A DNA stretch of 54,051 nt, taken from positions 1 through 54,051 of IMG/VR virus record IMGVR_UViG_3300025137_000052; one strand, 5' to 3'. Shown here one piece after another: positions 1 to 54,051 of this stretch (position 1 is its first letter; each line of letters opens with the position of its first letter). This DNA is from a virus. Both the position numbers and the translations under genes were made by a program. Below the pieces are notes generated by a model. The model did no database searches. It had not been told where the DNA came from and saw nothing but the letters and a program-made list of their open reading frames with translations.

Positions 1-309
1 AGCTGTAATTGTCTGAATCATATCCGTTTCACTAGATAAATTATTCCAATGCCATATGTCTGCACCCAATGTAGATGACCACCCATATTGAATTTGGTCC
101 TCTGTTAAATACTCAGATAAACTTACATCTCTTTGTATGCTGTCGCCATGATGTGCTGCAACAATACTGTTGCCATGATTATGTGATGGATCATTACATG
201 TCCATGCATTGTGATTAGAGTTATTGTTAAAAAATTGTTGTGGTAATAAGTTATTAGTAGTTTCTGCAAACAAAGTAATAGGGAACAACAAAGGTATTAT
301 GTATTTCAT
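1..309 (-). CDS. Exported acidic protein, N-terminal part (runs off the left edge, continues at 54051..53122)
   Basis: An open frame of 103 codons starts at the ATG at 309 and has no stop before base 1. The first 15 residues form a signal peptide (MKYIIPLLFPITLFA, probable cleavage before ETT). The next stretch is rich in Asn, His and Trp and has one Cys. The frame ends exactly on base 1 as GCT, and the frame entering the other window edge begins GAA TTG CCT, so the two halves join without a stop into a protein of about 412 residues if the molecule is circular. The start overlaps the preceding gene by ATGA (306-309), which supports it. I do not recognise the family. Export from the host cytoplasm is predicted from the signal peptide; the function is unknown. 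Confidence 0.72.
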   Translation of the reverse strand, partial: MKYIIPLLFPITLFAETTNNLLPQQFFNNNSNHNAWTCNDPSHNHGNSIVAAHHGDSIQRDVSLSEYLTEDQIQYGWSSTLGADIWHWNNLSSETDMIQTITA

Positions 310-723: not shown

Positions 724-1378
724 TCATACTCTCTTTGTATTTTCTGTATTGTTCCACTTTGTCATCAGTTTCTTTGCTTGGATTTCTTTTAACATAACTT
801 GTTCTTTTGGTTTGCTCATAGCCACCAAGTTCTTCCCATCTTGCTTTGGCTTTTTCACCAATCAATCCATCTATTGGGCATGGTGTACCCGCATCCATCA
901 TAGCTTGCCACACGTCAACGTCTTGACACATAAGTGATATTGCTGCTACTTTCATGCCTAGTTTAGCTAGAACTGATGTAGATTTTCTTCTTTCGCATTC
1001 TTTATCTACCATATAGCTACCAAATGAGCCTGAGAAGCCGATTACGGTTACTCCTGCTGCGAGTGGTATAACACAGCTATCTTGTCCATAAACGCTCATA
1101 CCAGGGGCTGAGGCCATGTTTACAGGTGTTCGACTTGCCGCATTTGAAGTTGAATTGTTAGTTGTAGCATTCGTAGTAGAACTACTACCAGATTGATAGG
1201 TAGTAGTCGTGTCAGAATTATAACCACCAGTTATCGCAGTCTGACTTCCTGAAGTAGAGGTTTGTGTATTTGTAGTTGCACCAGAACTCGTAACATCAGC
1301 AAGGGCATCAGTAAAGCCATAAGCTAATATCATTCCAAGTAAAAACCAACCAGCTAATTTTATTTTTTTCCACGACAT
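692..1378 (-). CDS. Exported Ser/Thr-rich phage protein with cysteines (228 aa)
   Basis: The start is taken at ATG 1378 (MSWKKIKLAGW), because GAGG lies 8 bases upstream of it; the ATG at 1384 is too close to that site. Residues 5-28 form a hydrophobic signal or anchor ending near ALA-DV. A low-complexity Ser/Thr/Asn/Gly segment of about 65 residues follows, then a Cys-containing domain with a second hydrophobic Gly/Ala segment (about 100-120) and the motif TPCPIDGLIG. The C-terminus is charged and His-rich. The family is not recognised by name, though the architecture suggests a secreted or membrane-tethered late protein. It overlaps the upstream gene by 19 bases. Confidence 0.68.
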   Translation of the reverse strand: MSWKKIKLAGWFLLGMILAYGFTDALADVTSSGATTNTQTSTSGSQTAITGGYNSDTTTTYQSGSSSTTNATTNNSTSNAASRTPVNMASAPGMSVYGQDSCVIPLAAGVTVIGFSGSFGSYMVDKECERRKSTSVLAKLGMKVAAISLMCQDVDVWQAMMDAGTPCPIDGLIGEKAKARWEELGGYEQTKRTSYVKRNPSKETDDKVEQYRKYKESMNEDHSNHNHD

Positions 1379-1614
1379 TTCCATTTCCTCAACGCTAACG
1401 CTTTTCTTGTTGGTCTACCTTTTGAATCTTTCATTGGTCCTTTAACACCAGACATTCTTGCACAAAAACTTGCTCGTCTTCCTGCCGCTTTAGAACCTTT
1501 AGGTGCTTTACCAGTTACAGGTGGTTTAAGATTAGATCCATCTTTTCGTTTAAAGTGAGCTCTACCTGCTGCGTTAAGACCTCCAGTTTTACTTTGGTAT
1601 TTCTTAAGGACCAT
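1360..1614 (-). CDS. DUF6321-like small basic phage protein (84 aa)
   Basis: This Lys/Arg/Gly-rich protein carries TGGLNAAGRAHFKRKDGSNL near the N-terminus and a conserved core, SFCARMSGVKGPMKD, then a basic ALRKWKC tail. The pattern is typical of DUF6321 proteins, which are widespread in marine and other tailed phages and have no established function. The ATG shares a base with the stop of the upstream gene (TAATG at 1614), so translation is probably coupled. It belongs to a set of very small basic proteins in the late region, for which nucleic-acid binding or virion location is plausible but not shown. Confidence 0.8.
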   Translation of the reverse strand: MVLKKYQSKTGGLNAAGRAHFKRKDGSNLKPPVTGKAPKGSKAAGRRASFCARMSGVKGPMKDSKGRPTRKALALRKWKCRGKK

Positions 1615-2348: not shown

Positions 2349-2636
2349 CTAATATTTTTGTGTTAGTGCTTCGATTTCTGCATCAGTCAATCCCAATGCT
2401 TTTAATTTATTTGTACCATTTGTTTTATCAGTTGCTTTTTGTGTTTCTGCATCTTTAATTTCTTGTATCTTAGCGTTTACATCTGCTTCACTAGGCATTG
2501 TTGCTGAATCATTTGCAAGTTCTAAGTTGGCATATGCCATTCTTTCACTACCTGTATAATCTGTTTTCCATTTATACCACTGACCTTTATCTGTATTAAA
2601 ATAAGCTAATGATAGTTGTAGATAATCTTTTGCCAT
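2349..2636 (-). CDS. Putative tail-fibre-associated protein (95 aa)
   Basis: A mostly hydrophilic protein with a Trp/Tyr-containing N-terminus (KGQWYKWKTDYTGS) and a helical C-terminal half rich in Ala, Lys, Asp and Glu that ends KLKALGLTDAEIEALTQKY. It follows the fibre gene at 2636-3601 directly, sharing one base, which is a common position for a tail-fibre assembly protein or chaperone. The terminal LGLTDAEIEAL motif is common in small phage structural accessory proteins. Neither a domain name nor a specific activity can be assigned. Confidence 0.65.
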   Translation of the reverse strand: MAKDYLQLSLAYFNTDKGQWYKWKTDYTGSERMAYANLELANDSATMPSEADVNAKIQEIKDAETQKATDKTNGTNKLKALGLTDAEIEALTQKY

Positions 2637-3601
2637 TATGTATCCCCTAATCTAATAAAACTGACACAAGTATTATTTGCATTAGTATTGCCTGTTACAT
2701 TACCACCTGACGCTAATGATATGACTTGAAAGTAAACCTTATCATTGCTTGTGTTTGTTACATCAAGAATACATTGTGAAAAATTTGATGTGTTTCCGTC
2801 TGAACCTTGACACTCGGCTAATGTATCACTTGCTGATGATGAGCTGTTAAAATAATTAGTAATCCATATTGCGTTATCACTATCATTTGTAGGTGCAAAT
2901 AAAACCATAGATTGAATTAAATATATACCAGTTTCATTAAATGAAAAATAAGGAGTTGAAAAGTTTACACCATCACCTACTTTAGTTGTTGCAGCATCAT
3001 CTGCTCTTTCAAAAGCACTTACTCCACCTGTATCTGATGTTACATTTGTAGTCAATCTCCATATATCTGCTTGTGTTATTCCACCACCAAAACCATTAGC
3101 TGTACCACTATTTGTAATAGTTGCACCCGAATCTACTGTTAAAGTCGAGCCTGATAAAACATTGAAAGCATTAGCAGCAAATTTAAAGTCATCTGCACCT
3201 GCAATCTTAATATCTATTTGGTCATCTGTGTCAGCAGTAATACTAGTATCACCATCAGCATCTAATACTAACTCAGCACCATTGAGGTCTCGAGCCTCTG
3301 CTTGTATATCTTCAAAAAGTTTAGCTACAGGTCTAAGCTCAAACCTATCACCTGTACTAAATGCTCTAGCTGAAGTATTGTCTTGTGCTCTGACTACAGT
3401 TAAAGAATCAGTAGACCTAGCCGTAACCTTAACAATCTCAAGATTGTTTGAAGTATCTATAAGAGTTGCATAAAATACATCTGGACTTGATGGGTTAGGA
3501 AATCTAGCTCCTTCACCAGAAGCTAATGCAACAGTTGTAGCTGAGTTATTTATACCTGATGCTAATGTACTGAATCCGTTATTTGTAATTTTAACTGTCA
3601 T
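2636..3601 (-). CDS. Tail fibre protein A with C1q/TNF-like C-terminal domain (321 aa)
   Basis: The first ~95 residues (including STLASGINNSATTVALASG and the RAQDNTSARAFSTGDRFELR region) form a structural domain that closely matches the N-terminus of the fibre at 6092-7189, so the two probably attach at the same kind of site. A short shaft-like segment with DGDTSITADTDDQIDI follows. The C-terminal ~150 residues (WRLTTN..., then YFSFNETGIYLI and CVSFIRLGDT) look like a trimeric jelly roll of the C1q/TNF type, a usual receptor-binding tip. The tail-fibre role is well supported. The receptor is unknown. Confidence 0.75.
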   Translation of the reverse strand: MTVKITNNGFSTLASGINNSATTVALASGEGARFPNPSSPDVFYATLIDTSNNLEIVKVTARSTDSLTVVRAQDNTSARAFSTGDRFELRPVAKLFEDIQAEARDLNGAELVLDADGDTSITADTDDQIDIKIAGADDFKFAANAFNVLSGSTLTVDSGATITNSGTANGFGGGITQADIWRLTTNVTSDTGGVSAFERADDAATTKVGDGVNFSTPYFSFNETGIYLIQSMVLFAPTNDSDNAIWITNYFNSSSSASDTLAECQGSDGNTSNFSQCILDVTNTSNDKVYFQVISLASGGNVTGNTNANNTCVSFIRLGDT

Positions 3602-3610
3602 ATTGTTATT

Positions 3611-4363
3611 CTACCCCTTTAAAAATAATTTTTCTATAAACCATGCAGGTGGGTCTAACTCCCACCATTTATGCCCATGTCTGTAATCTTTTGATTTTGT
3701 GTGATGATAGTTATGCCAACCCTCACCCCAGCTAATCAATGATGTCAGTGGGCTGTTTACTGCTGTGCAGTGTGGCTTAGATTCTACTACTTTATATCCA
3801 AAATGTTTGCTATGTGGTATAACACCAAATGCTCCAGCAGTTATATAAATGCAAGCACATGGAAACGAAAATAAAAATAATCCTAGCATAGGGTTTATTG
3901 TGTACAAAATTAATACATATGTAAACAGTAAAGCCCAATAATTCCTAGTGATGAACATGTAATCTTTGTCTTTGAGTATATCTTTGACCATTACTTTAGG
4001 TACAGTTATATGATCATATAGCGTAAGCCATGCTCTCAGATAACCTATTCTTGCAGGTGATTGGTTGTCATCTGTCGGGTGTCCAGAGTATCTATGATGA
4101 TATCGGTGCTGTGCTGTCCATGATAGTGGACTACCGAATGCTGATATAATTGTAAGGTATTTAAGTATCTTAGCTTTAATAGGCGTAGTTTCAAACGCTC
4201 TATGGCTCATAAATCTATGTATAGCTATATTAGTTGAAAATATATTTACAAATCCCCAGCCTATTATCCCATAGACTATGTACTCAGGATATGTAACACA
4301 CGCCCAGATAGATATTAGTATATTAGTTAACGCTAATAATTGTATCTTGATAGCGTGATTCAT
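3611..4363 (-). CDS. Membrane fatty-acid desaturase 2 (250 aa)
   Basis: This is an integral-membrane di-iron desaturase of the acyl-CoA/acyl-lipid delta-9 type. The three diagnostic histidine boxes are present: HRFMSH (residues 49-54), HRYHH (86-90) and GEGWHNYHH (histidines 217-221). There are several hydrophobic segments between boxes and a PPAW motif near the C-terminus. The family introduces a cis double bond in fatty-acyl chains using O2 and an electron donor, which is not encoded nearby. The start is ATG 4363, overlapping the previous stop as ATGA; a GTG at 4369 is possible. It is coupled to a second desaturase, and both sit among tail-fibre genes. Length is slightly short for the family, but the boxes are intact, so it is probably active and may alter host membrane lipids. 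Confidence 0.88.
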   Translation of the reverse strand: MNHAIKIQLLALTNILISIWACVTYPEYIVYGIIGWGFVNIFSTNIAIHRFMSHRAFETTPIKAKILKYLTIISAFGSPLSWTAQHRYHHRYSGHPTDDNQSPARIGYLRAWLTLYDHITVPKVMVKDILKDKDYMFITRNYWALLFTYVLILYTINPMLGLFLFSFPCACIYITAGAFGVIPHSKHFGYKVVESKPHCTAVNSPLTSLISWGEGWHNYHHTKSKDYRHGHKWWELDPPAWFIEKLFLKG

Positions 4364-5043
4364 GTCCACCCCAATCTTTTAACTAACCATACACATGGGT
4401 CAAACCAGCAGTGTGTAAGGTTTGGTTTAATGTGGTGTTGTCTATGAAATGATTCAGAAAATGCAAATGGGTACATGTAAGGTACGTCTCTTACTTCATC
4501 TGTATGGCACATAATACCCGTAACTAACATTACCCAGAACGTAGTCATGGCTACCGCAGTAGCCCATGTAAGAAACCATACAGTTGGAAGGACTAAGAAA
4601 AGAATAGCATTCAACATGTAAACCAACATTGTCTCATATTTAGTTAAAAATAATTGCCACCTATTTCTTAGCCTGTCTGTTGCCAGACTTAAATCATAAT
4701 CTTGTTCATGTGTCCTAAATATTATATACAGCCACGAGCTGTGCTTTGGACTATGAGGATCTCTGTCTGTGTCTGAATGCTTATGATGGTTTCTGTGCCA
4801 TGCACTATAAGATATTGGTGTACCTATCATAGCTGTTAGTGATACTACACTCATTATGTTTTGAAACCATACTGGTGGATTCCAGAGATTGTGTGTAGCC
4901 CATCTATGAATAAACAAACTCATAGTAAATTCTAATAAAAAATAAAAGAGTATGTATGTGTATAAGAGTTGTAGCCAAGATAGTGCTACAAAAGAATATA
5001 AAGCTAATCCAAAGTAAATGACATATAAAATAGTAAGTGCCAC
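4360..5043 (-). CDS. Membrane fatty-acid desaturase 1 (227 aa)
   Basis: A second di-iron desaturase, translated just before the one at 3611-4363. The histidine boxes are HRWATH (46-51), HRNHH (83-87, followed by SDTDRDPHSPKHS, the classic SDxDxDPHSP motif) and HRQHH (200-204, SESFHRQHH in place of GEGxHNxHH). The first 45 residues hold two membrane segments, and two more lie around residues 130-175. The start is GTG at 5043, because the nearby ATG is out of frame. It differs enough from its neighbour that a recent tandem duplication is not obvious; two substrates or a heteromeric pair are possible. The electron donor is not in the window. Confidence 0.87.
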   Translation of the reverse strand: MALTILYVIYFGLALYSFVALSWLQLLYTYILFYFLLEFTMSLFIHRWATHNLWNPPVWFQNIMSVVSLTAMIGTPISYSAWHRNHHKHSDTDRDPHSPKHSSWLYIIFRTHEQDYDLSLATDRLRNRWQLFLTKYETMLVYMLNAILFLVLPTVWFLTWATAVAMTTFWVMLVTGIMCHTDEVRDVPYMYPFAFSESFHRQHHIKPNLTHCWFDPCVWLVKRLGWT

Positions 5044-5044
5044 A

Positions 5045-5539
5045 TTAGTATTCCCATGTCATTCTTTTCATAACAGTACCAAAATCTTCAGCAGTTAGAG
5101 AGCCTAAACAAATACCATCTGTTGTTGCTTGTGTAAAATAAGTATCTATCTCACTATTTTTTATACATTCTAATGCAAACTTACTGCCACCTATTGATTG
5201 AATCCATGTTTTATTAGCTTGATGAAACTCGCTGGTATATGTCCATGCTTTACTGTTGTTTATTTTACCTACTAATACATTTTGCCATACATAAGTATTA
5301 TCTTTAAACCAACCTTGCACCCACATACACACTTCACCATCTTTAGCTACTTCAACATTTTTCATACCACCATAATTATTGTTGCACATTAGTTCTATAA
5401 GAAAATTTTTCTTATCGTCATCTGTAGTTCGATTAGTAAAATCTACTGTTCCACTTTTTAAAGAATCGAGACTGTCTGCATACAATGAATCAAATGTAGA
5501 GCCTGTTGTGAATGTTTTTTCTGTAAATGTGTATGCCAT
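5045..5539 (-). CDS. Hypothetical protein of the tail-fibre cassette (164 aa)
   Basis: A soluble-looking protein with a Trp/Cys-containing core (VCMWVQGWFKDNTYVWQNVL, then TWIQSIGGSKFALECI). It lies between the fibre-like gene at 5548-6108 and the desaturase pair, and its stop nearly abuts the GTG start of the first desaturase (1-base gap). No signal peptide or membrane segment is visible. A loose resemblance to a small acetyltransferase-like fold is possible but not supported by a motif, so no function is given. Co-transcription with both fibres and desaturases is likely. Confidence 0.65.
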   Translation of the reverse strand: MAYTFTEKTFTTGSTFDSLYADSLDSLKSGTVDFTNRTTDDDKKNFLIELMCNNNYGGMKNVEVAKDGEVCMWVQGWFKDNTYVWQNVLVGKINNSKAWTYTSEFHQANKTWIQSIGGSKFALECIKNSEIDTYFTQATTDGICLGSLTAEDFGTVMKRMTWEY

Positions 5540-5547
5540 CGTTTATC

Positions 5548-6108
5548 CTATGCGTTAATTCTAAAAGTTATTGAGCCTGAAGCAGGTATAATTGAGTGAC
5601 CATTTCCGCCTAAAGTTATGGTATATAGTTTATTATTATCTGCTGCTGCCATACTTAATCTAGTAATAGTAGTATTATGAACAGTAAGAGAAGTCCAATT
5701 ATTTGCACCAGTTGACATCTCAAATTTAAATCTACATGCATGTAAAGGTGAATTTGTTTCATACACTGAATAAACAACTCCACCACCACTAATATTATTA
5801 TTAGCTATACTTCCGATTGTACTTGTTGTTCCATTAGCATTATCTTGTGTTGTACCTACAGTACGACCATTGCTACTTATAAATCCACGATTATGTATAT
5901 TAACTTTTAATGTTTGTTCACCACAAGTAATTGTAGTGTTAAGAGAAATATTATTTGATGTTCCATAAAAATCTGCTGCTAGTTGTATCTCACCACTAGC
6001 TGGTGCATTACCTTTGTCGTGATATTCAGATAAACTATGAGGTGCAGAGCCACCAAACTCAGCAGCTATCTCGCTTAGTTTTATTTGACCACTACTTTGT
6101 AAAGCCAT
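5548..6108 (-). CDS. Tail appendage protein with a phage adaptor motif (186 aa)
   Basis: The N-terminal ~50 residues contain SSGQIKLSEIAAEFGGSAPH and then ASGEIQLAADFYGTS. This short motif pair is common in marine phage tail proteins and is thought to be a structural attachment module. The rest is a Thr/Asn/Gly-rich beta-type domain (VHNTTITRLSM and then LGGNGHSIIPASGSITF). The start lies within the last 17 bases of the S74 fibre gene. The protein is probably a distal tail or receptor-binding component; the domain fold is inferred from composition. Confidence 0.7.
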   Translation of the reverse strand: MALQSSGQIKLSEIAAEFGGSAPHSLSEYHDKGNAPASGEIQLAADFYGTSNNISLNTTITCGEQTLKVNIHNRGFISSNGRTVGTTQDNANGTTSTIGSIANNNISGGGVVYSVYETNSPLHACRFKFEMSTGANNWTSLTVHNTTITRLSMAAADNNKLYTITLGGNGHSIIPASGSITFRINA

Positions 6109-7189
6109 CTTTCAATTCCTTAATTTGTTCTTTTAACTCTTTTATACAGTTAATTAAAAGTCCATGAATTGCGTCATACTCTACTGTTTTATAGGTTTTG
6201 CCGTCTACAAGTGCAAGGGTTTTTTCCCTGACTGCTTCTGGTAAAACCTTTTCTAATTCCTGTGCAATAATACCAGCAGACTTCTGTCCATTGTGTCTTG
6301 TAAATGTAACGCCTCTGACTTCATCAATCTTATCTAGTGCGTTAGGTATCATTTGTATATCAGACTTTAATGCAACATCTGATACTGTAGTTGAGAAAGC
6401 AATAACATCTCCATCTACATGGAGGTCGCCATCATTTTCTAATCTCATTTCTTCAGCGGCACCTGTTGAAAATCTCATAGTGTTATCTGAATGAACATAA
6501 GATATTTGTCCTACATCGCCATCATCGGCGTCTCCTAAATTAATAAAAGCTGTTCCTGAATTTGCAGCTATAAGATTTACCCCACAGTTTCCACTCGTTT
6601 TAGTAACAGTTAAATCTCCTGATACTGTGCCACCATTGGCTGTAGTTTCTATTTTTTTAGCGTTATTGTGATAAAGTTCTACTGCTGCATCTGGAATAGC
6701 TACTATACTTGCCTCACCAGATTTTGCTCTAAGGTTTAAGTTTCCTGTACCGTTTTCTAAAAATGCTCCTGAACCATCATGTTTAATTACAAAATCGGTA
6801 TCGCTTCCAAAGTTTGCTTTATTTCCATCAGCAAAATTTATATCATTACCATTAGTACCTAGGTCTGACCCTAGTGCAGTTATTTGAGTTGAAACATCTA
6901 ATAAAGATTGTGCAGTAATTCTAAGTTCTATTCTGTCGCCAGTAGCAAATGCTCTAGCTGAAGTGCTTTCTTGTGCACGAGTAACAGTTAATACATCAGA
7001 TGATCTTGCAGTACATTTAGCAATCTCTAAATTATTTGATGCGTCTATGAGAGTTACAAAAAAATACTCACTGCCTGTTAAAGATGGGAATAAAGCTCCG
7101 TTCCCAGATGCTACAGTTATACTAGTAGCAGAGTTATTTATACCTGAAGCTAGTGTAGATACTGCGTTATTCGCAAATTTTACTGGCAT
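6092..7189 (-). CDS. Tail fibre protein B with C-terminal S74 intramolecular chaperone (365 aa)
   Basis: The N-terminal ~95 residues match those of the fibre at 2636-3601 (STLASGINNSATSITVASG; RAQESTSARAFATGDRIELR). The middle is a shaft rich in Asp/Gly/Asn. The C-terminal ~100 residues are a peptidase S74 chaperone: VSDVALKSDI with the probable catalytic Ser-Asp, then GVTFTRHNG, AGIIAQELEKVLPEAV and a final helical VEYDAIHGLLINCIKELKEQ. Such domains help fibre trimers fold and are usually cut off by self-cleavage, so mature fibre B should be shorter. Two fibre genes sharing one anchor suggest alternative or stacked fibres. Confidence 0.85.
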   Translation of the reverse strand: MPVKFANNAVSTLASGINNSATSITVASGNGALFPSLTGSEYFFVTLIDASNNLEIAKCTARSSDVLTVTRAQESTSARAFATGDRIELRITAQSLLDVSTQITALGSDLGTNGNDINFADGNKANFGSDTDFVIKHDGSGAFLENGTGNLNLRAKSGEASIVAIPDAAVELYHNNAKKIETTANGGTVSGDLTVTKTSGNCGVNLIAANSGTAFINLGDADDGDVGQISYVHSDNTMRFSTGAAEEMRLENDGDLHVDGDVIAFSTTVSDVALKSDIQMIPNALDKIDEVRGVTFTRHNGQKSAGIIAQELEKVLPEAVREKTLALVDGKTYKTVEYDAIHGLLINCIKELKEQIKELKDGFTK

Positions 7190-25704: not shown

Positions 25705-25886
25705 CAGCGTATAACATGATAGCAGAAGAGGATATGTGCAAATCAAACATACTTCAAATCGCTATCAGAAGAAGAGTACTGATAGACACAGTTAAAGTAA
25801 TCTTAACAGACAGCATATCAAAAGGTGAAAGCATAGAGCCTAACCGTTTGTATGAAACAATAATAAAAATGGAGAAGAAAGTATGA
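25701..25886 (+). CDS. Small helical early protein (61 aa)
   Basis: A helical protein beginning MTAYNMIAEEDMCKSNILQI, followed by RRRVLIDTVKVILTDSISKG. The ATGA overlaps with the genes before (25701-25704) and after (25883-25886) show tight coupling. It may be a small regulator or adaptor. No family was recognised. Confidence 0.62.
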   Translation: MTAYNMIAEEDMCKSNILQIAIRRRVLIDTVKVILTDSISKGESIEPNRLYETIIKMEKKV

Positions 25887-26110
25887 GTAGTATGACAGGC
25901 GAGTGGTGTTGCACTGAGTGTGGCTCGTACAATGCGTACCAAGAAACATTTAGTGATGATGAGGTAGGACACATTATGGGCTGTAATGATTGTGGTTACT
26001 ATGATGTATACAGAGAGAACGCAGATACAGGGGATATAATAGAAGAGTATCAAGGGCATGGACATTACTATGCCCAAGAGGATAAAGATAATAAGGAGAA
26101 AGACAAATGA
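25883..26110 (+). CDS. Zinc-ribbon-like protein (75 aa)
   Basis: Residues 9-40 carry CCTECGSYN and CNDCGYYDVY, a CxxC-x20-CxxC zinc-ribbon layout. The remainder is acidic and His-containing (EEYQGHGHYYAQEDKD). A zinc-stabilised fold is predicted. The partner and target are unknown. It is coupled by ATGA to both neighbours. Confidence 0.68.
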   Translation: MSSMTGEWCCTECGSYNAYQETFSDDEVGHIMGCNDCGYYDVYRENADTGDIIEEYQGHGHYYAQEDKDNKEKDK

Positions 26111-33807: not shown

Positions 33808-36657
33808 ATGAATATGTTGGAATTTCTCCAGCAAGTTTTACCAGCTGAGGGGTTTTATGTAACTACTGTCATCAATCCTGACGGTAGACGGCAGGGATTC
33901 TTTAAGTCTGTGGACGAACTTGCACAAGTATGTGAAAGACTTGACAAAACTAATAACAATACTTACTTCGCAATATCTGCGTTTAAGCAAAAGGGTAACA
34001 GGAAACAAGATAACGTAAGAGCTACTAAGGTAGTAGCTATAGATATAGATTGCGGTGGTAATAAACCGTACCCTTCATGGAAAGAAGGACTAGTAGCACT
34101 AGGTAAATTTGTATCTGACCTGAAGTTACCCAAGCCTATGATAGTACATTCAGGTAATGGACTGCATGTATACTGGGTACTAGATGAAGAGCTACCACCT
34201 GAGCAGTGGAAACCATTAGCTGAGGCTATGAAACAAGCCGCTATACAAAAAGAATTTAAGATAGACGCAGGACTTACAGCAAATAGTGCACTAGTACTAC
34301 GACCTGTGGGCACTCACAATCCAAAGAATGGTAATAAAGTTAAGGTATTAGTAGAGTCTGAGGCAACTAGCCCTGAGATTTTAAAGCAACGCTTATCATA
34401 CTACTACGTAGCGGGTGATCACCAAAAGAGCAGCACACATGACAACTCGTTGCTGGATAACCTAGCTACTAAGAATGAATACCAACCAGCTGTAGGCTCA
34501 GTGGTCGCTAAGAAATGTAAACAGATAGAGTGGGCTATAGACAATCAAGATAAGGTAGATGAGCCGTTATGGTACAGTTTAATAGGGGTAGCCGCTTTCT
34601 GCCAAGACCCTGAAACAACAGCAATAGAGTGGTCTAAGGGGCATACTGGATATAGTGAAAGGTCAACTAAGCAGAAGTTAAATCAATGGAAAGAGTCTGC
34701 GTCAGGCCCCACTACCTGTGCTAAGTTTGAATCTAGTAGACCTACAGGCTGTAGGGGTTGTAAATACAAGGGAAAGATAGGCTCACCAGCTAGACTAGGT
34801 GTGCAATATCAAGAAGCTCCCATAATAAAGCAGGCTCCTGACAAAGTAGCTAACGCTGTACCCATGCCTAAACCATTTAAAAGAACTAAAGATGGTATCA
34901 AAGTAACCATTGATGACACAGATATTGATGTATGTAAGTTTGATATATACCCCGTAGGCTATGGTCTTGATGAATCACTAGGCTATGAAACAGTTAGATT
35001 TCATTGGGATAGACCACACATGGGGTGGCAAGAACTGAATTTAAGACAAGCGTACCTTACTGATGGGGCTAGAGAGTTTCCTAGTGCTATAGCAGATCAA
35101 GGTATTGTACTTTACAATAAGAAACAAACGGAGTATTTTCAACTTATGTTAAGGACTTACATGGATGAGCTGAGACAGATTCGCACAATGACGAATCTAT
35201 ACTCAACTATGGGGTGGAAAGAAAAGAATAAATCTTTCTTACTAGGTAACACATTAATCAAGCGTAAGCCTGACGGCTCTGTAGTAGAAGAGACTATAAG
35301 CTTAGCGTCTATAATACAAAGACAAGGTGCGGACTTATATAATACTAAAGGTTCATTAGAACAATGGGTAAACCTCACGTCTATAATGGAGAAAGCCCAT
35401 TTAAAATCACACATGTTTGCATTAGGTGTAGGATTCTCAGCACCACTATATAATTTTACAGGGCTCAAAGGACTAACGATATCTTTGTATGGTCCAACAG
35501 GTGGTGGTAAAACATTAGCTCAGTACTGGGCTCAGTCTATATACGGAGATCCTGAGAAGCTACACTTTGCAGCTAAGTATACTCAGATGGCTTTGTTCTC
35601 ACGTCTTGGTACGTATGGTAATCTACCTCTTACAATAGATGAAGTAACCATGATGAGTGATAAAGAGGTCGGAGACTTCTGCTACTGGGTATCACAAGGG
35701 CGTGACAAGGCAAGGCTTAATAGAAATGCTGAAGAAAGGGACGCTAAGACTTGGGCTACACCTGTACTGGTATCTACCAACAAGTCTTTACAAAGTAAAC
35801 TTATAGCTTCTGGTCTTGATACTGACGCACAGATGGCTAGATTATTAGAATTAACAGTACCTCAGACTGATGTATTTACAAGGAACAGTGATGTAGGTAA
35901 GAAGATATACCAAGCTATCCATACAAACTATGGACATGCAGGCAAAATATTTATAAAGAACTTAGTAGAGATGGGTGAAGAAGGTATTCAATCTATCATA
36001 GCTGAAGCTTCAGATAACTTTGCTAAGAAATATAGATGTAACTTTGGTGGTCAAGAAAGATACTGGGAGCAATCTATTATACTTGCTGACCTATCTATGA
36101 GCCTAGCTAAAGAGTGGGGTCTTATTGATTATGACTATGAGCAGTCTACTGAATGGGTACTAGCACAAATAGGTGCGATACGCAGGTCAGTACAAGAGAA
36201 TCAAGTAGACGCATTCGATCTTGTTGCAGAGTACATGGCTGATTCAGCTGATACATCCGTTACTATCATGCATACAACAGGGCAGAAAGCACAACCTGAT
36301 TTCTCTAGAATACCAAGAGGTGATATAAGAATAAGACTTGATGTGTTTAGGAAATCTGCAGCTGAGCCATTTGATAAAGGAACTATGATGATTGATAGAA
36401 CACATTTTAGGAAGTGGTTATCCATACGTGGTGCTGACTATAAAACATTTAAGCAAGAACTTATGGATGAGAATGTAGTTGCAACTCCTAAATCTGAGAA
36501 GGCTTCACTAGGTAAAGATACTCCTGTTAAATTAGCACAGACATACGTTGTAGGATTTAACTTAACACATCCTAGATTCCAGAGCTTGCTTGATAATGCA
36601 GATGTAGAAGCTGATGATTTATCATACGGTCAGCTACAAGTATTAGATAAGGATTAG
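33808..36657 (+). CDS. Primase-helicase: AEP-like primase with DUF927-type helicase (949 aa)
   Basis: The N-terminal part has AIDIDCGGNKPYP (about residue 80, catalytic Asp pair), HSGNGLHVYWVLDE (about 113, with the His) and LRPVGTHNPKNG (about 165), the motifs of RepB/AEP-like primases. A Cys cluster CAKFESSRPTGCRGCKYKG follows near 305-320. The C-terminal part has Walker A YGPTGGGKTLAQYW (about 560) and LTIDEVTMM (Walker B), as in DUF927-type helicases. It is the last gene of the early block; its TAG overlaps the stop of the late gene on the other strand. It probably makes primers and unwinds DNA. Confidence 0.85.
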   Translation: MNMLEFLQQVLPAEGFYVTTVINPDGRRQGFFKSVDELAQVCERLDKTNNNTYFAISAFKQKGNRKQDNVRATKVVAIDIDCGGNKPYPSWKEGLVALGKFVSDLKLPKPMIVHSGNGLHVYWVLDEELPPEQWKPLAEAMKQAAIQKEFKIDAGLTANSALVLRPVGTHNPKNGNKVKVLVESEATSPEILKQRLSYYYVAGDHQKSSTHDNSLLDNLATKNEYQPAVGSVVAKKCKQIEWAIDNQDKVDEPLWYSLIGVAAFCQDPETTAIEWSKGHTGYSERSTKQKLNQWKESASGPTTCAKFESSRPTGCRGCKYKGKIGSPARLGVQYQEAPIIKQAPDKVANAVPMPKPFKRTKDGIKVTIDDTDIDVCKFDIYPVGYGLDESLGYETVRFHWDRPHMGWQELNLRQAYLTDGAREFPSAIADQGIVLYNKKQTEYFQLMLRTYMDELRQIRTMTNLYSTMGWKEKNKSFLLGNTLIKRKPDGSVVEETISLASIIQRQGADLYNTKGSLEQWVNLTSIMEKAHLKSHMFALGVGFSAPLYNFTGLKGLTISLYGPTGGGKTLAQYWAQSIYGDPEKLHFAAKYTQMALFSRLGTYGNLPLTIDEVTMMSDKEVGDFCYWVSQGRDKARLNRNAEERDAKTWATPVLVSTNKSLQSKLIASGLDTDAQMARLLELTVPQTDVFTRNSDVGKKIYQAIHTNYGHAGKIFIKNLVEMGEEGIQSIIAEASDNFAKKYRCNFGGQERYWEQSIILADLSMSLAKEWGLIDYDYEQSTEWVLAQIGAIRRSVQENQVDAFDLVAEYMADSADTSVTIMHTTGQKAQPDFSRIPRGDIRIRLDVFRKSAAEPFDKGTMMIDRTHFRKWLSIRGADYKTFKQELMDENVVATPKSEKASLGKDTPVKLAQTYVVGFNLTHPRFQSLLDNADVEADDLSYGQLQVLDKD

Positions 36658-39600
36658 TGGTCGTTGATAGCTTGTTCGTAAGCGTCCATTAAAAATTGTG
36701 TTTCAGGTCTAATGTTTTTAGGTGCAAACTTCTTATACCTTTCAGCAGCTGGCATTGACCAAGCTCTAAATGCTCTTTGTGCTGAAGGTAACCAGCGTTT
36801 TAACTCAAACTCAGTTCCTCTGTGGTCTTGGTTATGTTCTTTAACTTCTCTTTCTATTTGTCTCATAGTCTTTCTATCTTTATTTATCTTAGCTTTTACC
36901 CAAGCGTCAGTGTATGATTTTTTAATTGCTTTAGCAAAGCCGTCAGTTTGTTTACTCATTCTTATTATATCGTTTTGATAAGTAGCCCCAGCTGGATAGA
37001 AGTTTAAGAATCTAAATACAGTCTGCAATGTAGACACATCATCCATTATTACTTTGCCTTCTTTATTTGTAACCTGTCCGCTAGTTGCATAATCTATTCC
37101 ATCTGTTACGCCTCTTAGTGCACCGAATGGTTGGTTCTTTAGAACATCAGTCCAAGTGGTTGTATCAGATTTTAAACCAATAGCCTCTGCACCTTGTGCT
37201 GCAACTAGACTCAACGTGCCTGCTGTCTGCTCACCAGCTGACCATACAGGCCCTAAAAAGTTTTTTGCTTCTTGCCAAGGATCTGCACCTGCTTTACCTA
37301 CACCTGTCAGAGGTATTAAATCACCGAAGCCTAGTCTTGTAGACACGGTAGCTCCAAGAAAATAATCTAAGAAACCTCTCATGGCTACTGGAGATGCACC
37401 AGGAGCTATCTCTTCTATAAAATCAACAACATTTTTTTCTACGGTTGCAGTTTTGAAACCAAACTTCTGCGTTAAAGTATCAATTAAATCTGTAATGTCA
37501 TCAGCAAATGGTAGTCCTTTTAGACCTGACATTAAAACAAGTAGTGTTAGCATAGCTAATTGTTCTTTCCGACCTAAGTTTTTCATAAGCTCCACAGTAA
37601 TAATTACAAATTGTTTATACATAAAGATGTATTGAAGAACATTACCACGAGCCATAGCAGGTCTATTAAACATTCCATACTCACCCTGAGATGTATTGAC
37701 AGCTCTTATCGCAAACTCTTCTGCAGATTTCTGTATCTCATCTTGTTTTAAATCTCCAGCTTTTTGTAGCTTATCTCTTTGTAATCTATAAGCTGCTAAG
37801 AAAGTTGTTCTTCTATTTAATTGCTCTGTATAAGAGAACACTTTCATCCACCCTCTAACTACACCAGCCAAATTTTTATTAGCCATTAAGCCACCTCTAG
37901 CTGTACCAACAAGAGCATTAAACTGTGCGGCTTGAAGTACACCTTGTTCAGTAGCTTCAAGTAATACTTGAGCTTCGTCTTGAGTTATACCGTACTTATC
38001 TTGTAATGATGTATCTTTAACTAGTTCTTGCATGTGAGTTAGTGTCTCTAACTTAAAATTCTTCATATGTCTTAGTGCTCTAGTCATAGCACCAGCAGAT
38101 TTAGTTAAGCCAAACCCACCACCGTAACCAGTCTTAGCATTATATGTAGATAGGTATGGAATACTATGGCTTACCATTGATATAGTATTAACAAAACCTG
38201 TAGCAACAGATCCACCAAGTTGAGAAGTTACTGTTAGTAGTTTTATAAATGAGCCTGCCTCACCTGATAACAGGTCTTCTGTAGATACATCTATATTTCC
38301 TGCTTTACCATAAAAATCTAATAACCCGCCAGCAACAGACCTATATCTTTTACCTTGACCTTCAGTTTTTACTTGTACTGCTTCTCTATTTTTACCACTA
38401 CCTTTATAAACTGTTATTGTTCTGTCTGTTAATCCAGCTGAGTATCTATACTGGTTAGCATAACTATCGTATTGCTGTTGTGCTATTTTAATTTGCTCAT
38501 CGCTACCTGTAGCTTCAACTTTCTCCATTCTTTCTTTAAGTCTATTAAGTTTATCTCTATTTCCAGCCCAAAGCTTTTCGTCTGTAGTGTATTTGTTAAG
38601 CTTATGTGAGTAAAAAGTTTTACCAGCTGCATGTGACATAGTCTCTAAATGTTCTGATACACTTCTTACTACGTCTGCATTCCAACCAGCAGTACCTGAA
38701 CGTTGTAAACTTTTTCTTGCTCTTTCTGATTGTTTAGTTAAAGCAGTAGTTACTTTTTTCATTTGCTCTGGTTTAAGATTTACATTTAACCTTACAAGAA
38801 TACTTGTAAACTCATTTAAATTCATAGCAGAGGATAGTGGTGCACTAGAACTAACTTCACTGGTTTCTGGTTTTAAATTAACTTCTACATCCTGTAGGTT
38901 TTTATCTTTAAATTTATATTTGGTATCTTTAAAATCATCTTTAAGACTATCAAAAAGCTCTCTTGCATCTTGTTTAGAATCAACTTGGTAATACGGTAGT
39001 ACATTTTTGGTGTGGGAATCTAATTCTATTTCGTTATCATTATCATCAAATGCTCTTAATGTAACTTGATAGTTACCACGTCTAGTAAATGGTACATACC
39101 CACCGAGTATTGTACGCTTAGCATTGAACTCATTGTTTACATTTTTTAAATCTAACAGTAATAAATTTTCTATTGTTTTAGTAACTTGGTCAGCACCTGA
39201 TCTTTCACCACTATATACTTCATGAAGTTGTTGCAAACTATTTACTACATCAGTAAAGTCTTCAGTACCTTTTACTTTAAATATGTCAACTTCTGTAGCG
39301 TCACCAGCAATCCAATCATTAAGTTTGTTTTCATCACCTTTTTTCCATAAAGCACGGTTGACATCTCTTAGAAATAACTCAGCATTTTTCTGAGACTCAG
39401 GGTCATAAGTTATACCTACACCTTCTAGTTTCGCATTTTCAGAATATAGCTCTTGGTATTTTTTTACTATTACTGTAGCCGCAGCTTGATCTTGAGCACT
39501 AGCACCTATACCCCTTTTATTTTCTGCAAAGTCTTTTACGATACTTAGTATGTCTTGTCTTTCTGATATAGTTGCTTCTAAGTTTGACTCTAGTAAATCT

Positions 39601-42600
39601 TTTGCTGCTTCGTTTACAGCATTTCTATTCTCTTCAAATATTTTATAGATTCTATCAGTCACTACAAAGTTAGGTTTGTAGTTTAGCTTATCACCATTAA
39701 CATTTTCTGTGCCGTCTTGTAATATATCTAAAGTAACTTCAAAACCTGCTGCTAATTCTTCTTTAGTCATCATACCTTCAGCTTTCATTCTTTCAAATGC
39801 TGCTTCATTTATAACATTTTCACCTATAGAGTTAGTTGTAATTAAAGACTCAGCATTGTTAATTGCATTTTCATTTCTTGTTGCAGGAACGTTGCTTCTA
39901 TATAAAGCAAAGTAAGCTAATAGTTCCCCAGCCTGAATCAGTTCTTGTTGAGTTGGTCCATCAGTGATGCCTAGTTTATTTAGCACAGAGTTATCTAGAC
40001 TGTGAGTAAACTTAGTCATGTTCGCATATATCTGTTGAAACTTTCTTGTTCTAGCTGTTTGCCCTTGGAACAAACTAAATATTTTGGACAGGCCCTCACT
40101 ACGCAATGCTATGTTATCTAATGTTTGAAATTCTTCTAGTACTTTACCAAACCAACTTGATGCATCACCTTCAGTTAATTGTTTACCTGTTCTTTTAGCT
40201 GAGTTCCACCAAGACTTATATCCAAGAAGACCGCCAGGCTCTCCTCGAAGTGTTATTATTTGATTAGTTAAACTTTTATAAGCCGCAGCCGAACTAGACT
40301 CTGCATTGTAACGACCATATGTACTTTCATTTTTTAATCTTTCTAAATTCTTAACCATCTGATATACCGATACAACACCACTACCACCCGTGCGTAGATT
40401 ATTACGAGATTGAAATACTAAGTACCTTGTCATGTCATCTTGATACTCTCTACCAAAAACATCACGCATAAAGTTTTTAACTGCATTCCAAAATCTTGCG
40501 AGTATGTGAGAGTCTACATGCGAAGCATAGTCAGCTAGTACTTCTTCTATAGCTTCATATCTTTCCTCACCGTTACCTATACGCTGGTCAGACAAAGCTC
40601 TTATCGCTGGATCACTTTGATATATATCATCAAGTATTAATTTTAATTTTGCTCTTGGTACAAACGCACTAAAACCAAAATGTCCTAATGCTTCATGACC
40701 TACAATACTTCGTAGCGTTTGCTCATCTTTAACAAAGTCTGTAAATATTATTATCTGATCGCCAACAGAATAGCCTGAAGCTTTTACAGTTTCAAAGTCG
40801 TCTCTAGCTGCAGCTGCTCTTTCATATAGTTTAGGATTAGTTTCTCGCAGCTCTTGTTTGTTTCTAACTACAGTTACTGTTGGTTTTGTTTTGAATTTTT
40901 TTAATATCTGTTTAACTATTAGTTCTGCTTTACCTTTAGGTACTGGGTTTTTTATTTCTTGTCCACTATCATACCTATAGTTTCTACCTGTATTAGAATC
41001 AGCCTCATCTATTATCTCTTGAGTAGTAGGGCCTGCATCTTTGTCTATCGGTTTAGGTACAAATCTTTCACGACCATCTATATTTGATTTACCTAAATTT
41101 AAGTTACCATCTTTGTCAAAGAAATCTCCTAGTGTTAATCCTTTGGATACAATAAAGCCTGGGTCTGAACCAGCAAATAAATTTTCTAGCTCAACAATTT
41201 TAGAATTTTTAGCTCCTTTATTCTGACCACTAGTAACAGTTAAGTTTGTAATTGAAGTAGTCTTACCATTAATATGTTCAGTTATTAAATCAACTAATCT
41301 ATTAGAAGCCACTTCTTCATTTAGATTTGTAGCACTTTGGTCGTCTTGACCAACTTTATCTGTAGCTGGTCCTTGGTCTGCTTGGTATTTAGCAGGTTTG
41401 TTTCTAACTCTACTACCCATTTGATTTAAAATTGCATCCATAGCATCTAGTCTCTCAGCTATGCCAACCCATTGAGACGGTACTCCTTTTGTTTGCATAC
41501 TTAGATTATCTTTTAGCATAGCCGCAGCTATAAACTCTTCTCTTATAATGTCTAGCTGCTGGTCGGTAAACTGTGTATTTAATAAGAAGTCGGTAACAAA
41601 CTGACGCTCTGATTTATTATTTAATAAAACTCTATTCGCATTTGGATTAGCATTATCACCAAAGTATCCAATCGTAACTAACTCTGCTATAGCATCTCTA
41701 AGTTTATCTACGTCTGACGTAGTCTCACCTTGTAAGCCTTCTATTTCAGCTTGTGCATCTATTATAATCTCAGCATTTGATAATCCTTCTTTCTGCTCAT
41801 CAAACTCTTTTAATGCGAGCTGGCTGTATTTACTTTGTAGTCTAGCCTTATTTATTTCAGGCTTTGTAAATGATGGGTCACTTTCAAACTGTTGTTTAAG
41901 TTCTGGTGATACAGCATCGTAACTTAAAACTGTACCTAAAGATGCCCACACAGTAGCTGGATCTTTAGTAGGCTTAGGCGTTGCTACACGATTTTCCCTC
42001 GACCTATTGGTTGATTCAGCAACTTGTTCTTTGCGATCTTGCCTACCCCTTTTAAGCTGTTCTGCTTTCGATTCTTGTCTCGTAGTCGTGCTTCCATCTT
42101 CAGCTTGTCCTTGGTCTTCTTGACTTTCTGCGGTAACTTGAGCCTCTGGTTCTTGCTGGTTTCTCTCAGCAACTCCTCCGCTATCTGTGGTCGATTCTTC
42201 TGCAGCCACTTCAGCTGGGCTTTGCTCTTGATTGGCATCTTGTGCACCTCCTTTTTCTGGCATTGTTCTTATAGTGAAATCACTCATGGCTTCTACGGCA
42301 TCATCACCAAACGATACTATTAAACCACCAGCATCTTGTACAAATCTTTCGTGTTGTTCTTTTGTACCTTGAAGTTGTACAAAGTTAACTCCGCCAGAAG
42401 GCATAGGTGTAAATGATTCTGTAAGTTCTGCGTTATCTATTTCAGCTTGAACATCTACACTGTTAAAACTTTCACTTAATTCATAGAGAACTCTTCCGCC
42501 TACAATTCCACGGGAAGCTGTTTCAACTGTTCCTGTACTTGTTGCAGTAGGTCTTTCTGCAGCAGCTGTTGCTTCAGCTTCACGTCTTTTAGTCTCTGCT

Positions 42601-52465: not shown

Positions 52466-52903
52466 TTATTTCCTCGTTAATGAACCACCAAAATATAATC
52501 CAATGATAGAAAATATAGTGTGTGATTGTAGGTTAGTTATATAAACTGTGTTGCCTGCTTCAAAGTATGATGTCTCATATACCTCACCAAATATCCACCA
52601 ACCACTATCTGCTTCAGTCATTATCTGATAAGCAACATTAACATCAGTAAAGATTGGTGCAACGATTGGCACTACAATAATGCTAAATACGCACATCAAT
52701 GCTATCCAACGTCTAGTGTGCTTGGTGTGTGGGTCAGATACTTCTCTTGCTTTGTCTGTTTGTTGAGCTGCAAATTCTGCACGTTGCATTAACATTTTCT
52801 CACGCTCTGCTTGAGCTTGACCTTTCTGTGCTTGAATAGACATAATTCCCCCAAGTACCGTACTTGCGAGCATACTCAATAATTCCATTGGCATTCCAAA
52901 CAT
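52466..52903 (-). CDS. Holin-like membrane protein (145 aa)
   Basis: Three hydrophobic segments at about residues 7-24, 66-88 and 124-141 are separated by a charged helix (KGQAQAEREKMLMQRAEFAA) and an aromatic loop. The layout resembles three-TM holins of the GTA/marine phage type, which open the inner membrane at lysis. It lies next to a TM-coiled-coil protein and upstream of exported proteins, so a lysis role is plausible. A virion membrane protein is the alternative. The gap to its upstream neighbour is 4 bases. Confidence 0.62.
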   Translation of the reverse strand: MFGMPMELLSMLASTVLGGIMSIQAQKGQAQAEREKMLMQRAEFAAQQTDKAREVSDPHTKHTRRWIALMCVFSIIVVPIVAPIFTDVNVAYQIMTEADSGWWIFGEVYETSYFEAGNTVYITNLQSHTIFSIIGLYFGGSLTRK

Positions 52904-52907
52904 ATCG

Positions 52908-53132
52908 TTACCTCAACGGGTTGTCTGATCTAGCTTTTATCTCATCTACTTTTGCTTTGAGTACAGCTATTTCAGCTTTGTTAATTGCTATGTCTTGTTC
53001 TAGTGGTTTTATGTTTACTGCCTTTTGAGCTTCAAGAACATCAACCCTTGTAATTAATTGCCCTTGGTAAACAAAAAGTCCTGCTATGGTTATGACTAGT
53101 CCTATGCCAGTCGCTATGGTTTTAATATCCAC
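52908..53132 (-). CDS. N-terminal membrane anchor plus coiled coil (74 aa), i-spanin-like
   Basis: A single transmembrane helix (KTIATGIGLVITIAGLFVYQ, about residues 4-23) is followed by a long helical coil (LEQDIAINKAEIAVLKAKVD). This is the topology of inner-membrane spanins (Rz-like): short cytoplasmic tip, anchor and periplasmic coil. A small lipoprotein that could pair with it lies at 595-723, about 1.7 kb away across the joined ends. It overlaps the acidic protein by 11 bases. The coil is shorter than in typical Rz, so the assignment is tentative. Confidence 0.58.
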   Translation of the reverse strand: MDIKTIATGIGLVITIAGLFVYQGQLITRVDVLEAQKAVNIKPLEQDIAINKAEIAVLKAKVDEIKARSDNPLR

Positions 53133-54051
53133 GAATCCTCCTTAAGTGTTCTTCTGCTCTAATTCTTTCGTCTACTTTATCCTGAACATTCTTTTGGTAC
53201 TGTGCAACAGGGTCACCATAAACATTCTGATTCTCAGCATATAAATTTCTAACATCAATATATTGTCTTGTTTCAAAGTAATCACCTCCATCTATATTCG
53301 GTTGATTAAGTATATCTTTGTTTACTTTACCATAATTGTCTACAGAAAAAGAACTTTGCATAGCTTTTGCTACTATAACAGACGTAGCTACTAATCTTTG
53401 GTCTATTCTTTTTACAAGCTCGTTTACTTTTTTCTCAACATTTTCTACTGTAATAGTTTGATTATCTCTTGGAGAAACTCTTTCATTCCTGCTTTCTTCC
53501 ACCTCTTGATTTCCGCTTTCGATATCTTCTTCTGCTCTAGCATTAGTTTCATCTCCAGCATCTCCATTTCCACCTGCTCTTGTTTCTCCTTCTCTGTCAA
53601 TTTCATCTTCTCCAGCAACCCCCGTAGATTCATTAGTTATTTCTTCACTAGCAACAACTGTATCTTCTGTTTGAGGTTCGTTAGAAATAGTTTCACTTTC
53701 GTTATCAATCTGTTCAGGTTGCTCTTGAGCGATTGTTTCTTCATTTGCACTGACTTCTTGCTCATCTGGTCCTCCCATTGTTGGTCGTTCTGCTCCTTCA
53801 TTTGTTGCGACAATCTCTTCATCAACTGGTCTTGGTTCATCGACGCTTTCAAAGTCTGCGGGACTTTCGTTTTGAGCGATTGGCTCTTCTGCAAAGAAAC
53901 TTTCGATTTCTTGAATTCCTTCAACTGGTCCCTGGTTGTCATAACTTTCTCCTGCTTCAAAGAAGCTTTCTTCGATTTGGATTTCTGTTGCGACTTCCGA
54001 GAAGTTCTCTTGACTGTCATATCTTATCTCCTCACCTATAGTAGGCAATTC
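53122..54051 (-). CDS. Exported acidic protein, C-terminal part (starts off the right edge; joins 1..309)
   Basis: The frame is open from the window edge (GAA TTG CCT ACT) and ends at 53122. A TTG at 54048 could be called a start, but it has no need to be one if the ends join in frame with 309..1. The first ~170 residues are very acidic and low-complexity (Glu/Asn/Gln/Asp-rich, e.g. NEETIAQEQPEQIDNESETI), and the last ~110 form a folded domain (VENVEKKVNELVKRIDQRLV, then RIRAEEHLRRIRGY). A second, +1 frame is also nearly open here. The function is unknown. Confidence 0.68.
   Translation of the reverse strand, partial: ELPTIGEEIRYDSQENFSEVATEIQIEESFFEAGESYDNQGPVEGIQEIESFFAEEPIAQNESPADFESVDEPRPVDEEIVATNEGAERPTMGGPDEQEVSANEETIAQEQPEQIDNESETISNEPQTEDTVVASEEITNESTGVAGEDEIDREGETRAGGNGDAGDETNARAEEDIESGNQEVEESRNERVSPRDNQTITVENVEKKVNELVKRIDQRLVATSVIVAKAMQSSFSVDNYGKVNKDILNQPNIDGGDYFETRQYIDVRNLYAENQNVYGDPVAQYQKNVQDKVDERIRAEEHLRRIRGY

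What the first reader, a model, noticed from the sequence alone, without database searches (positions are those of the whole stretch)
3611..5043. Two adjacent intact fatty-acid desaturases inside the tail-fibre cassette
Both proteins keep all three histidine boxes (HRFMSH/HRYHH/HNYHH and HRWATH/HRNHH/HRQHH), and their genes are coupled by an ATGA overlap. They sit between fibre genes and are transcribed with the late block. Desaturases act on acyl chains in membranes, so late expression could change host membrane fluidity at lysis or assembly, or modify lipids linked to adsorption. The two are clearly different in sequence, so a duplicate with diverged substrate or a heteromeric enzyme is possible. 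No electron donor is encoded.
Basis: partly seen in the sequence, partly recalled or inferred. Interest (0 to 1): 0.85.

Follow-up and report, generated by a model that had tools for sequence, protein, structure and literature searches.

The report
Paired fatty-acid desaturases in marine phages
A marine bacterial virus carries two side-by-side genes for enzymes that put double bonds into membrane fats, and dozens of other marine viruses, some of quite different build, carry the same inseparable pair, so viral editing of host lipids in the sea appears to rely on a conserved enzyme team.

Summary
Confirmed. Window 3611-5043 (minus strand) encodes two intact, ATGA-coupled membrane desaturases: D1 (252 aa) and D2 (227 aa), 24% identical. 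Both pass Pfam's FA_desaturase cut-off, and all nine putative iron-ligand histidines are invariant in relatives. A confident D2 model matches only solved stearoyl-CoA desaturase (SCD1) structures.

In 73 of 73 IMG/VR contigs where it could be checked, D1 directly follows another desaturase. Twelve contigs have three in tandem and ten have four. The pair occurs in phages of different build, including T4-like phages related to pelagiphage Mosig, where it is not beside fibre genes. dN/dS is 0.11-0.15. In the window's lineage, fibre, GNAT-fold protein, D2 and D1 form an accessory insert: a close relative has the flanks without it.

Most likely the pair desaturates host membrane acyl chains late in infection, using the host's electron donor; sequential, parallel or heteromeric action is untested. 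Phage desaturases are known (cyanophages, Arctic viruses with five copies, Mosig). New here are the strict pairing, its spread and the linked GNAT-fold gene. I found no earlier report of this pair in the open papers searched. New variant of a known kind.

The parts
3611..4363 (-). D1: SCD/DesC-type membrane fatty-acid desaturase (conserved ATG start at 4363; ORF extends to GTG 4369)
   Evidence: PF00487 54.9 bits; phmmer to SCD1 4ymk 1.5e-10; boxes HRFMSH/HRYHH/HNYHH; nine His invariant; dN/dS median 0.11
4360..5043 (-). D2: second, divergent membrane fatty-acid desaturase (GTG start)
   Evidence: PF00487 36.6 bits; profile to SCD1 6.9e-6; AF2 model pLDDT 95.6, pTM 0.91; Foldseek: the only four hits under 0.001 are SCD1 entries, TM about 0.76 by query length
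4360..4363 (-). ATGA stop/start overlap coupling D2 to D1
   Evidence: sequence; the close spacing is kept in the 52 distinct pairs: overlap in most, 2-3 nt after the D2 codons in the T4-like and L064-L069 types
5045..5539 (-). c2: GNAT-fold protein, 1 nt upstream of D2; part of the same cassette in podovirus-type contigs
   Evidence: AF2 pLDDT 90.2; Foldseek PDB GNAT acetyltransferases E about 5e-6; followed by a desaturase in 125 loci against 2 remote exceptions; no R/QxxGxG/A motif visible in alignment A3
5548..6108 (-). c3: fibre-like protein with conserved N-terminus (MALQSSGQIKLSEIAAEFGG...), first gene of the accessory cassette
   Evidence: conserved upstream neighbour of c2 in the gene maps; variable C-terminus
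3603..6857 (-). Accessory segment absent from the close relative L277 (holds c3, c2, D2, D1 and the diverged end of fibre gene 6092-7189)
   Evidence: nucleotide homology to L277 stops at 6858 (85.8%) and resumes at 3602 (93.9%); L277 gene map lacks c3-c2-D2-D1
6092..7189 (-). Upstream flanking tail-fibre gene with S74 chaperone domain
   Evidence: PF13884 4.8e-13; PHROG tail fibre families
2636..3601 (-). Downstream flanking tail-fibre gene
   Evidence: phrog_8469 2.6e-31; 93.9% nt identity to L277 from 3602

Best explanation
D2 and D1 are two SCD-like (Delta-9 type by their motifs) di-iron membrane desaturases that phages keep and exchange as one translationally coupled unit. They are probably made late, insert into the host inner membrane, take electrons from a host donor, and raise the unsaturation of host membrane acyl chains, D1 and D2 acting on different chains or positions of the same lipid pool. 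Shown by computation: family, catalytic histidines, fold of D2, coupling, strict pairing, purifying selection, transfer between phage types and an empty site. Inferred: late expression (strand and neighbours), membrane location, acyl-lipid substrate, regiochemistry, host electron donor and benefit to the phage.
For: Pfam above cut-off for both. Nine His invariant in 132 distinct sequences and in a 48-row set with bacterial homologues. D1 aligns over 225 residues with SCD1 including box III GEGxHNYHH; the D2 model matches only SCD1. D1 always preceded by a desaturase (73 of 73 contigs) and D2 always followed by one (84 of 84 loci). Median dN/dS 0.11 and 0.15. Same pair at 74-79% identity in T4-like contigs whose gp55 is 76% identical to pelagiphage Mosig. 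Empty site in L277. Prior work, from my own knowledge of the abstract: Roitman et al. 2018 (ISME J 12:343) showed Delta-9 desaturation by cyanophage enzymes; cited in PMC11480375 and PMC7300359.
Against: No activity, expression or lipid data. The host is unknown. D2 is only weakly like characterised desaturases. No electron donor was found, so activity depends on the host. Strict pairing would also fit a heteromer or a pathway for one special lipid.
Confidence: 0.6

Rival explanations
1. D1 and D2 form one heteromeric desaturase; neither works alone.
For: Strict adjacency and fixed close spacing in all contigs checked; D1/D2 identities correlate across contigs (Spearman 0.54).
Against: Each protein keeps all nine histidines, so neither looks like a dead subunit. 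The partner can differ: in L072-L074 a third type (D5) takes the place of D2, and in L070 D5 lies between D2 and D1. Some contigs show mismatched divergence (L009: D1 93%, D2 67%). No complex was modelled.
Confidence: 0.15
2. The desaturases serve a pathway for one special lipid or lipid-linked surface molecule (altered receptor, superinfection block), not bulk fluidity.
For: A GNAT-fold gene directly precedes D2 in podovirus-type contigs. L072 has D5-D1 among at least five radical-SAM genes. Mosig's single desaturase lies beside an aminotransferase and several annotated redox and radical-SAM type genes. A Bacteriovoracaceae contig has an ATG-coupled desaturase pair beside two radical-SAM-like ORFs and an aminotransferase-like ORF, and its second desaturase is 56% identical to Mosig's.
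Against: The GNAT-fold protein lacks a recognisable CoA-binding motif and could be a virion or fibre-linked protein (its viral structural matches include T7-like internal virion protein A). Gene partners differ between phage types, so no single pathway is shared.
Confidence: 0.15
3. FA_desaturase-superfamily enzymes with other chemistry (hydroxylase, ketolase, epoxidase).
For: The superfamily includes such activities (general knowledge); D2 scores weakly to desaturases by sequence.
Against: Box spacing HX4H/HX2HH/HX2HH and SCD1 as the only significant structural match; the hydroxylase scs7p scores E 1.3 and AlkB E 6.2.
Confidence: 0.07
4. Passenger genes: neutral cargo of a fibre-exchange cassette.
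For: Accessory, present in a minority of the structural relatives sampled, inside a recombining fibre region.
Against: Strong purifying selection, no broken copies in 92 loci, and retention as a pair in phages where it is not near fibre genes.
Confidence: 0.03

Closest known systems
Cyanophage-encoded lipid desaturases (vFAD; Roitman et al. 2018, ISME J 12:343; text not held here, known from citations and memory)
   Same: Phage-encoded membrane desaturases in marine phages; Delta-9 activity shown for them
   Different: Described as single desaturase genes in cyanophages (from memory). A tblastn with D1 or D2 at E 1e-3 met no cyanophage record in the 50,697-record collection.
Arctic cryopeg and sea-ice vFADs (PMC7300359, PMC10405475)
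   Same: Several FAD genes per virus (five copies each in two viruses), three histidine motifs, purifying selection
   Different: Those five-copy viruses exceed 220 kb and are predicted to infect Pseudomonas (PMC10405475). The paper does not describe a fixed coupled pair shared across phage types; sequences were not compared here.
Pelagibacter phage Mosig EXVC030M FA_desaturase gene (MT647606, Mosig_00080)
   Same: Marine T4-like phage desaturase, 28% identical to D2, 26% to D1
   Different: Single gene, among aminotransferase, nitroreductase and hydroxylase-like genes; nearest to a Bacteriovoracaceae desaturase (56%)
Freshwater pelagimyophage stearoyl-CoA desaturase (PMC7029224) and pelagiphage scaffold with desaturase and tetrapyrrole genes (PMC11480375)
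   Same: Desaturase genes in SAR11-type myophages
   Different: No pairing is reported in the passages read
SCD1 / acyl-CoA desaturase (PDB 4ymk, 4zyo, 6wf2)
   Same: Fold, three histidine boxes, ninth histidine
   Different: 15-17% identity, about 90-100 residues longer; cellular animal enzyme

Membership tests
Membrane fatty-acid desaturase (Pfam PF00487, SCD-like) | Profile match above the curated cut-off | tested here: met
   54.9 and 36.6 bits against 29.7
Membrane fatty-acid desaturase (Pfam PF00487, SCD-like) | Three histidine boxes and ninth histidine ligand | tested here: met
   Invariant in 132 viral-set sequences and in the 48-row set with cellular homologues
Membrane fatty-acid desaturase (Pfam PF00487, SCD-like) | Helical membrane fold of SCD1 | tested here: met
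   D2 model: SCD1 entries are the only hits under E 0.001. D1 was not folded; it aligns with SCD1 by sequence
Membrane fatty-acid desaturase (Pfam PF00487, SCD-like) | Di-iron geometry in the model | not tested
Membrane fatty-acid desaturase (Pfam PF00487, SCD-like) | Desaturation of an acyl chain | not testable with these tools
   Needs expression and lipid analysis
NCBIfam DesA family desaturase NF049918 | Score above the equivalog cut-off of 400 bits | tested here: not met
   49.7 and 19.2 bits
Phage auxiliary metabolic gene | Host-type metabolic enzyme kept under selection in a phage genome | tested here: met
   Flanked by phage genes; dN/dS 0.11-0.15
Phage auxiliary metabolic gene | Close host homologue showing the donor | tested here: not met
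   Best cellular matches to D1 at most 35% identity; the scan used D1 patterns only and was limited to 80 loci
GNAT superfamily (c2) | GNAT fold | tested here: met
   Foldseek E about 5e-6, probability 1.00; moderate TM of about 0.5
GNAT superfamily (c2) | R/QxxGxG/A acyl-CoA binding motif | tested here: not met
   Not seen in the 15-row alignment A3, by eye

The most novel reading that the evidence does not exclude
Marine phages share a mobile lipid-editing module in which two to four distinct desaturases work as one enzyme team (a heteromer or an ordered multi-step desaturation), with a GNAT-fold acyltransferase-like partner in podoviruses, to make a lipid the host cannot make alone.
Probability: 0.15. 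Interest if true: 0.8.

Novelty: new variant of a known kind. Interest (0 to 1): 0.52.

Why it matters
Phage desaturases have been reported as isolated or multi-copy auxiliary genes. A pair that is never separated, is exchanged between phages of different build, and grows to four tandem paralogues in phages related to SAR11 phages makes a testable case that membrane-lipid editing is a real infection strategy in abundant ocean phages and that it needs more than one desaturase.

Tried and rejected
Chance or decayed ORFs: rejected by profile scores, invariant histidines and dN/dS. One partner a dead enzyme: no support, since both keep all nine histidines. Recent tandem duplication in this phage: 24% identity and separate fully supported clades argue against a recent one, but an ancient one is not excluded (AU p = 0.29 for D1+D2, 0.26 for all viral paralogues). 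Acinetobacter 'phage' MD-2021a as a close phage relative: its record reads as bacterial DNA (trp, btuB, baeRS). Encoded electron donor: none found by motif; the rubredoxin-pattern hit at 25856-26107 looks like a zinc ribbon. c2 by sequence: no Pfam or PDB match; only the fold showed GNAT. Downstream c4 as a known holin: no Pfam support. A local promoter for the pair: promoter-like hits are fewer than in shuffles (48 against 71), so uninformative. RNA elements: none at gathering thresholds. Class-wide searches with D2 found only distant homologues apart from one Bacteriovoracaceae pair. The text of Roitman 2018 was not held.

Full report
What is there. The window is one whole IMG/VR virus record of 54,051 bases. 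On the minus strand, 3611-4369 and 4360-5043 encode two proteins of 252 and 227 residues. I call them D1 and D2; D2 is read first. The conserved D1 start is the ATG at 4363, which overlaps the D2 stop as ATGA.

Family and fold. Both pass the Pfam FA_desaturase cut-off (54.9 and 36.6 bits against 29.7). D1 aligns with animal SCD1 (E 1.5e-10); a D2 profile does too (6.9e-6). An AlphaFold2 model of D2 from a 48-sequence alignment has mean pLDDT 95.6 and pTM 0.91. Its only PDB matches under E 0.001 are four SCD1 chains, with TM about 0.76 over the query. In 132 distinct full-length relatives all eight box histidines and one further histidine (D2 H180) are invariant, and they stay invariant when bacterial homologues are added. 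D1 was not folded. Metal geometry was not measured.

The pair is a unit. Scans of IMG/VR found 80 loci for D1 (the cap) and 68 for D2. In all 73 contigs with enough upstream sequence D1 is directly preceded by a desaturase; in all 84 loci with enough downstream sequence D2 is followed by one. Ten contigs carry four desaturases in a row and twelve carry three (counted after removing duplicate loci). The spacing of D2 and D1 is fixed: overlapping in most, 2-3 bases apart in the T4-like and L064-L069 types. Median dN/dS is 0.11 (D1) and 0.15 (D2). In three contigs (L072-L074) another paralogue, D5, takes the place of D2, and in L070 it lies between them.

Different phages. The window's phage has a portal related at 25-34% to those of Rhizobium phage RHph_TM, pelagiphage HTVC103P and HMO-2011 type podoviruses and a terminase of PHROG 2. 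Other carriers have a terminase of PHROG 38 (L045), or T4-like head-tail genes (L070). L015-L028 carry the array between a UvsW helicase with a small Sm-like gene and the late sigma factor gp55, followed by SbcD and SbcC; that gp55 is 75.6% identical to the one of Pelagibacter phage Mosig. D1 and D2 there are 74-79% identical to the window's. So the pair has moved between phage types. An alphaproteobacterial, perhaps SAR11, host is an inference.

An accessory cassette. In podovirus-type contigs the order is c3 (fibre-like), c2, D2, D1. A relative, L277, matches the window at 86% up to 6858 and at 94% from 3602, and lacks c3, c2, D2 and D1. With L001 and L285 the homology over the pair begins at 5056, the border of c2 and D2, so D2-D1 also recombine as a block.

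The upstream partner. c2 (5045-5539) has no Pfam, PHROG or PDB match by sequence. Its model (pLDDT 90.2) has the GNAT fold (E about 5e-6 to many acetyltransferases), without a visible R/QxxGxG/A motif. It is followed by a desaturase in 125 loci; the two exceptions are remote, at 26% identity. These loci include repeat pulls of the same contigs and were partly found through the desaturases, so the figure is not an unbiased rate. Its viral structural matches include T7-like internal virion protein A, so it may be a virion protein and not an acyltransferase.

Origins. A careful tree puts D1 to D5 in separate fully supported clades with long stems. AU tests reject neither D1+D2 as one clade (p = 0.29) nor all viral paralogues as one (p = 0.26). 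Cellular homologues of D1 are at most 35% identical. A Bacteriovoracaceae contig has its own coupled pair beside two radical-SAM-like ORFs and an aminotransferase-like ORF, its second member 56% identical to Mosig's desaturase.

Mechanism. Most likely both proteins insert into the host inner membrane, take electrons from a host donor (none is recognisable in the phage), and add double bonds to host acyl chains; the HX4H/HX2HH/HX2HH boxes and SCD1 fold suggest Delta-9 type chemistry. Late expression rests on strand and neighbours only. Whether the two act in sequence, in parallel or as a heteromer is open. Alternatives, including a special surface lipid, are listed as rivals.

Known and new. 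Phage desaturases are known: cyanophage enzymes (Roitman 2018, not held), Arctic viruses with up to five copies (PMC7300359), freshwater pelagimyophages (PMC7029224), a pelagiphage scaffold (PMC11480375) and Mosig. The strict pair, its spread over phage types, the four-gene arrays in T4-like phages, the GNAT-fold neighbour and the empty site are what this work adds. The literature search covers open-licence papers only.

Noticed in passing
window 1-309 and 53122-54051: The two window ends continue one reading frame (gene c8 of L001) with about 135 codons missing, so the record is probably a near-complete, circularly permuted genome lacking about 400 bases.
   Followed up: partly
window 52466-52903; L003 6911-7348: c4, a small protein with hydrophobic stretches of unknown family (phrog_38283), directly follows the desaturases in 47 loci; holin-like in size but without Pfam support. 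In the window it lies further downstream.
   Followed up: partly
L128 3866-5304: A Bacteriovoracaceae MAG contig has an ATG-coupled desaturase pair beside two radical-SAM-like ORFs and an aminotransferase-like ORF; the second desaturase is 56% identical to that of pelagiphage Mosig.
   Followed up: partly
L072 194-12115: A viral contig with at least five radical-SAM genes around a D5-D1 desaturase pair: an unusual biosynthetic-looking cluster in a phage-type contig.
   Followed up: partly
L122 (CAKLQH020000002.1): The record named Acinetobacter phage MD-2021a looks like bacterial chromosome DNA (trpB/trpC, btuB, baeRS) in this stretch, probably mislabelled.
   Followed up: no
window 36654-44960: A 2768-residue ORF whose last 520 residues match PHROGs of unknown function; function not resolved.
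   Followed up: no
window 25883-26107: Short ORF with two CxxCG pairs, zinc-ribbon-like; the only candidate found when looking for a rubredoxin.
   Followed up: partly
window 1360-1614: DUF6321 protein (Pfam PF19846, 96 bits), a small conserved phage protein of unknown function that recurs in several carriers of the pair.
   Followed up: no
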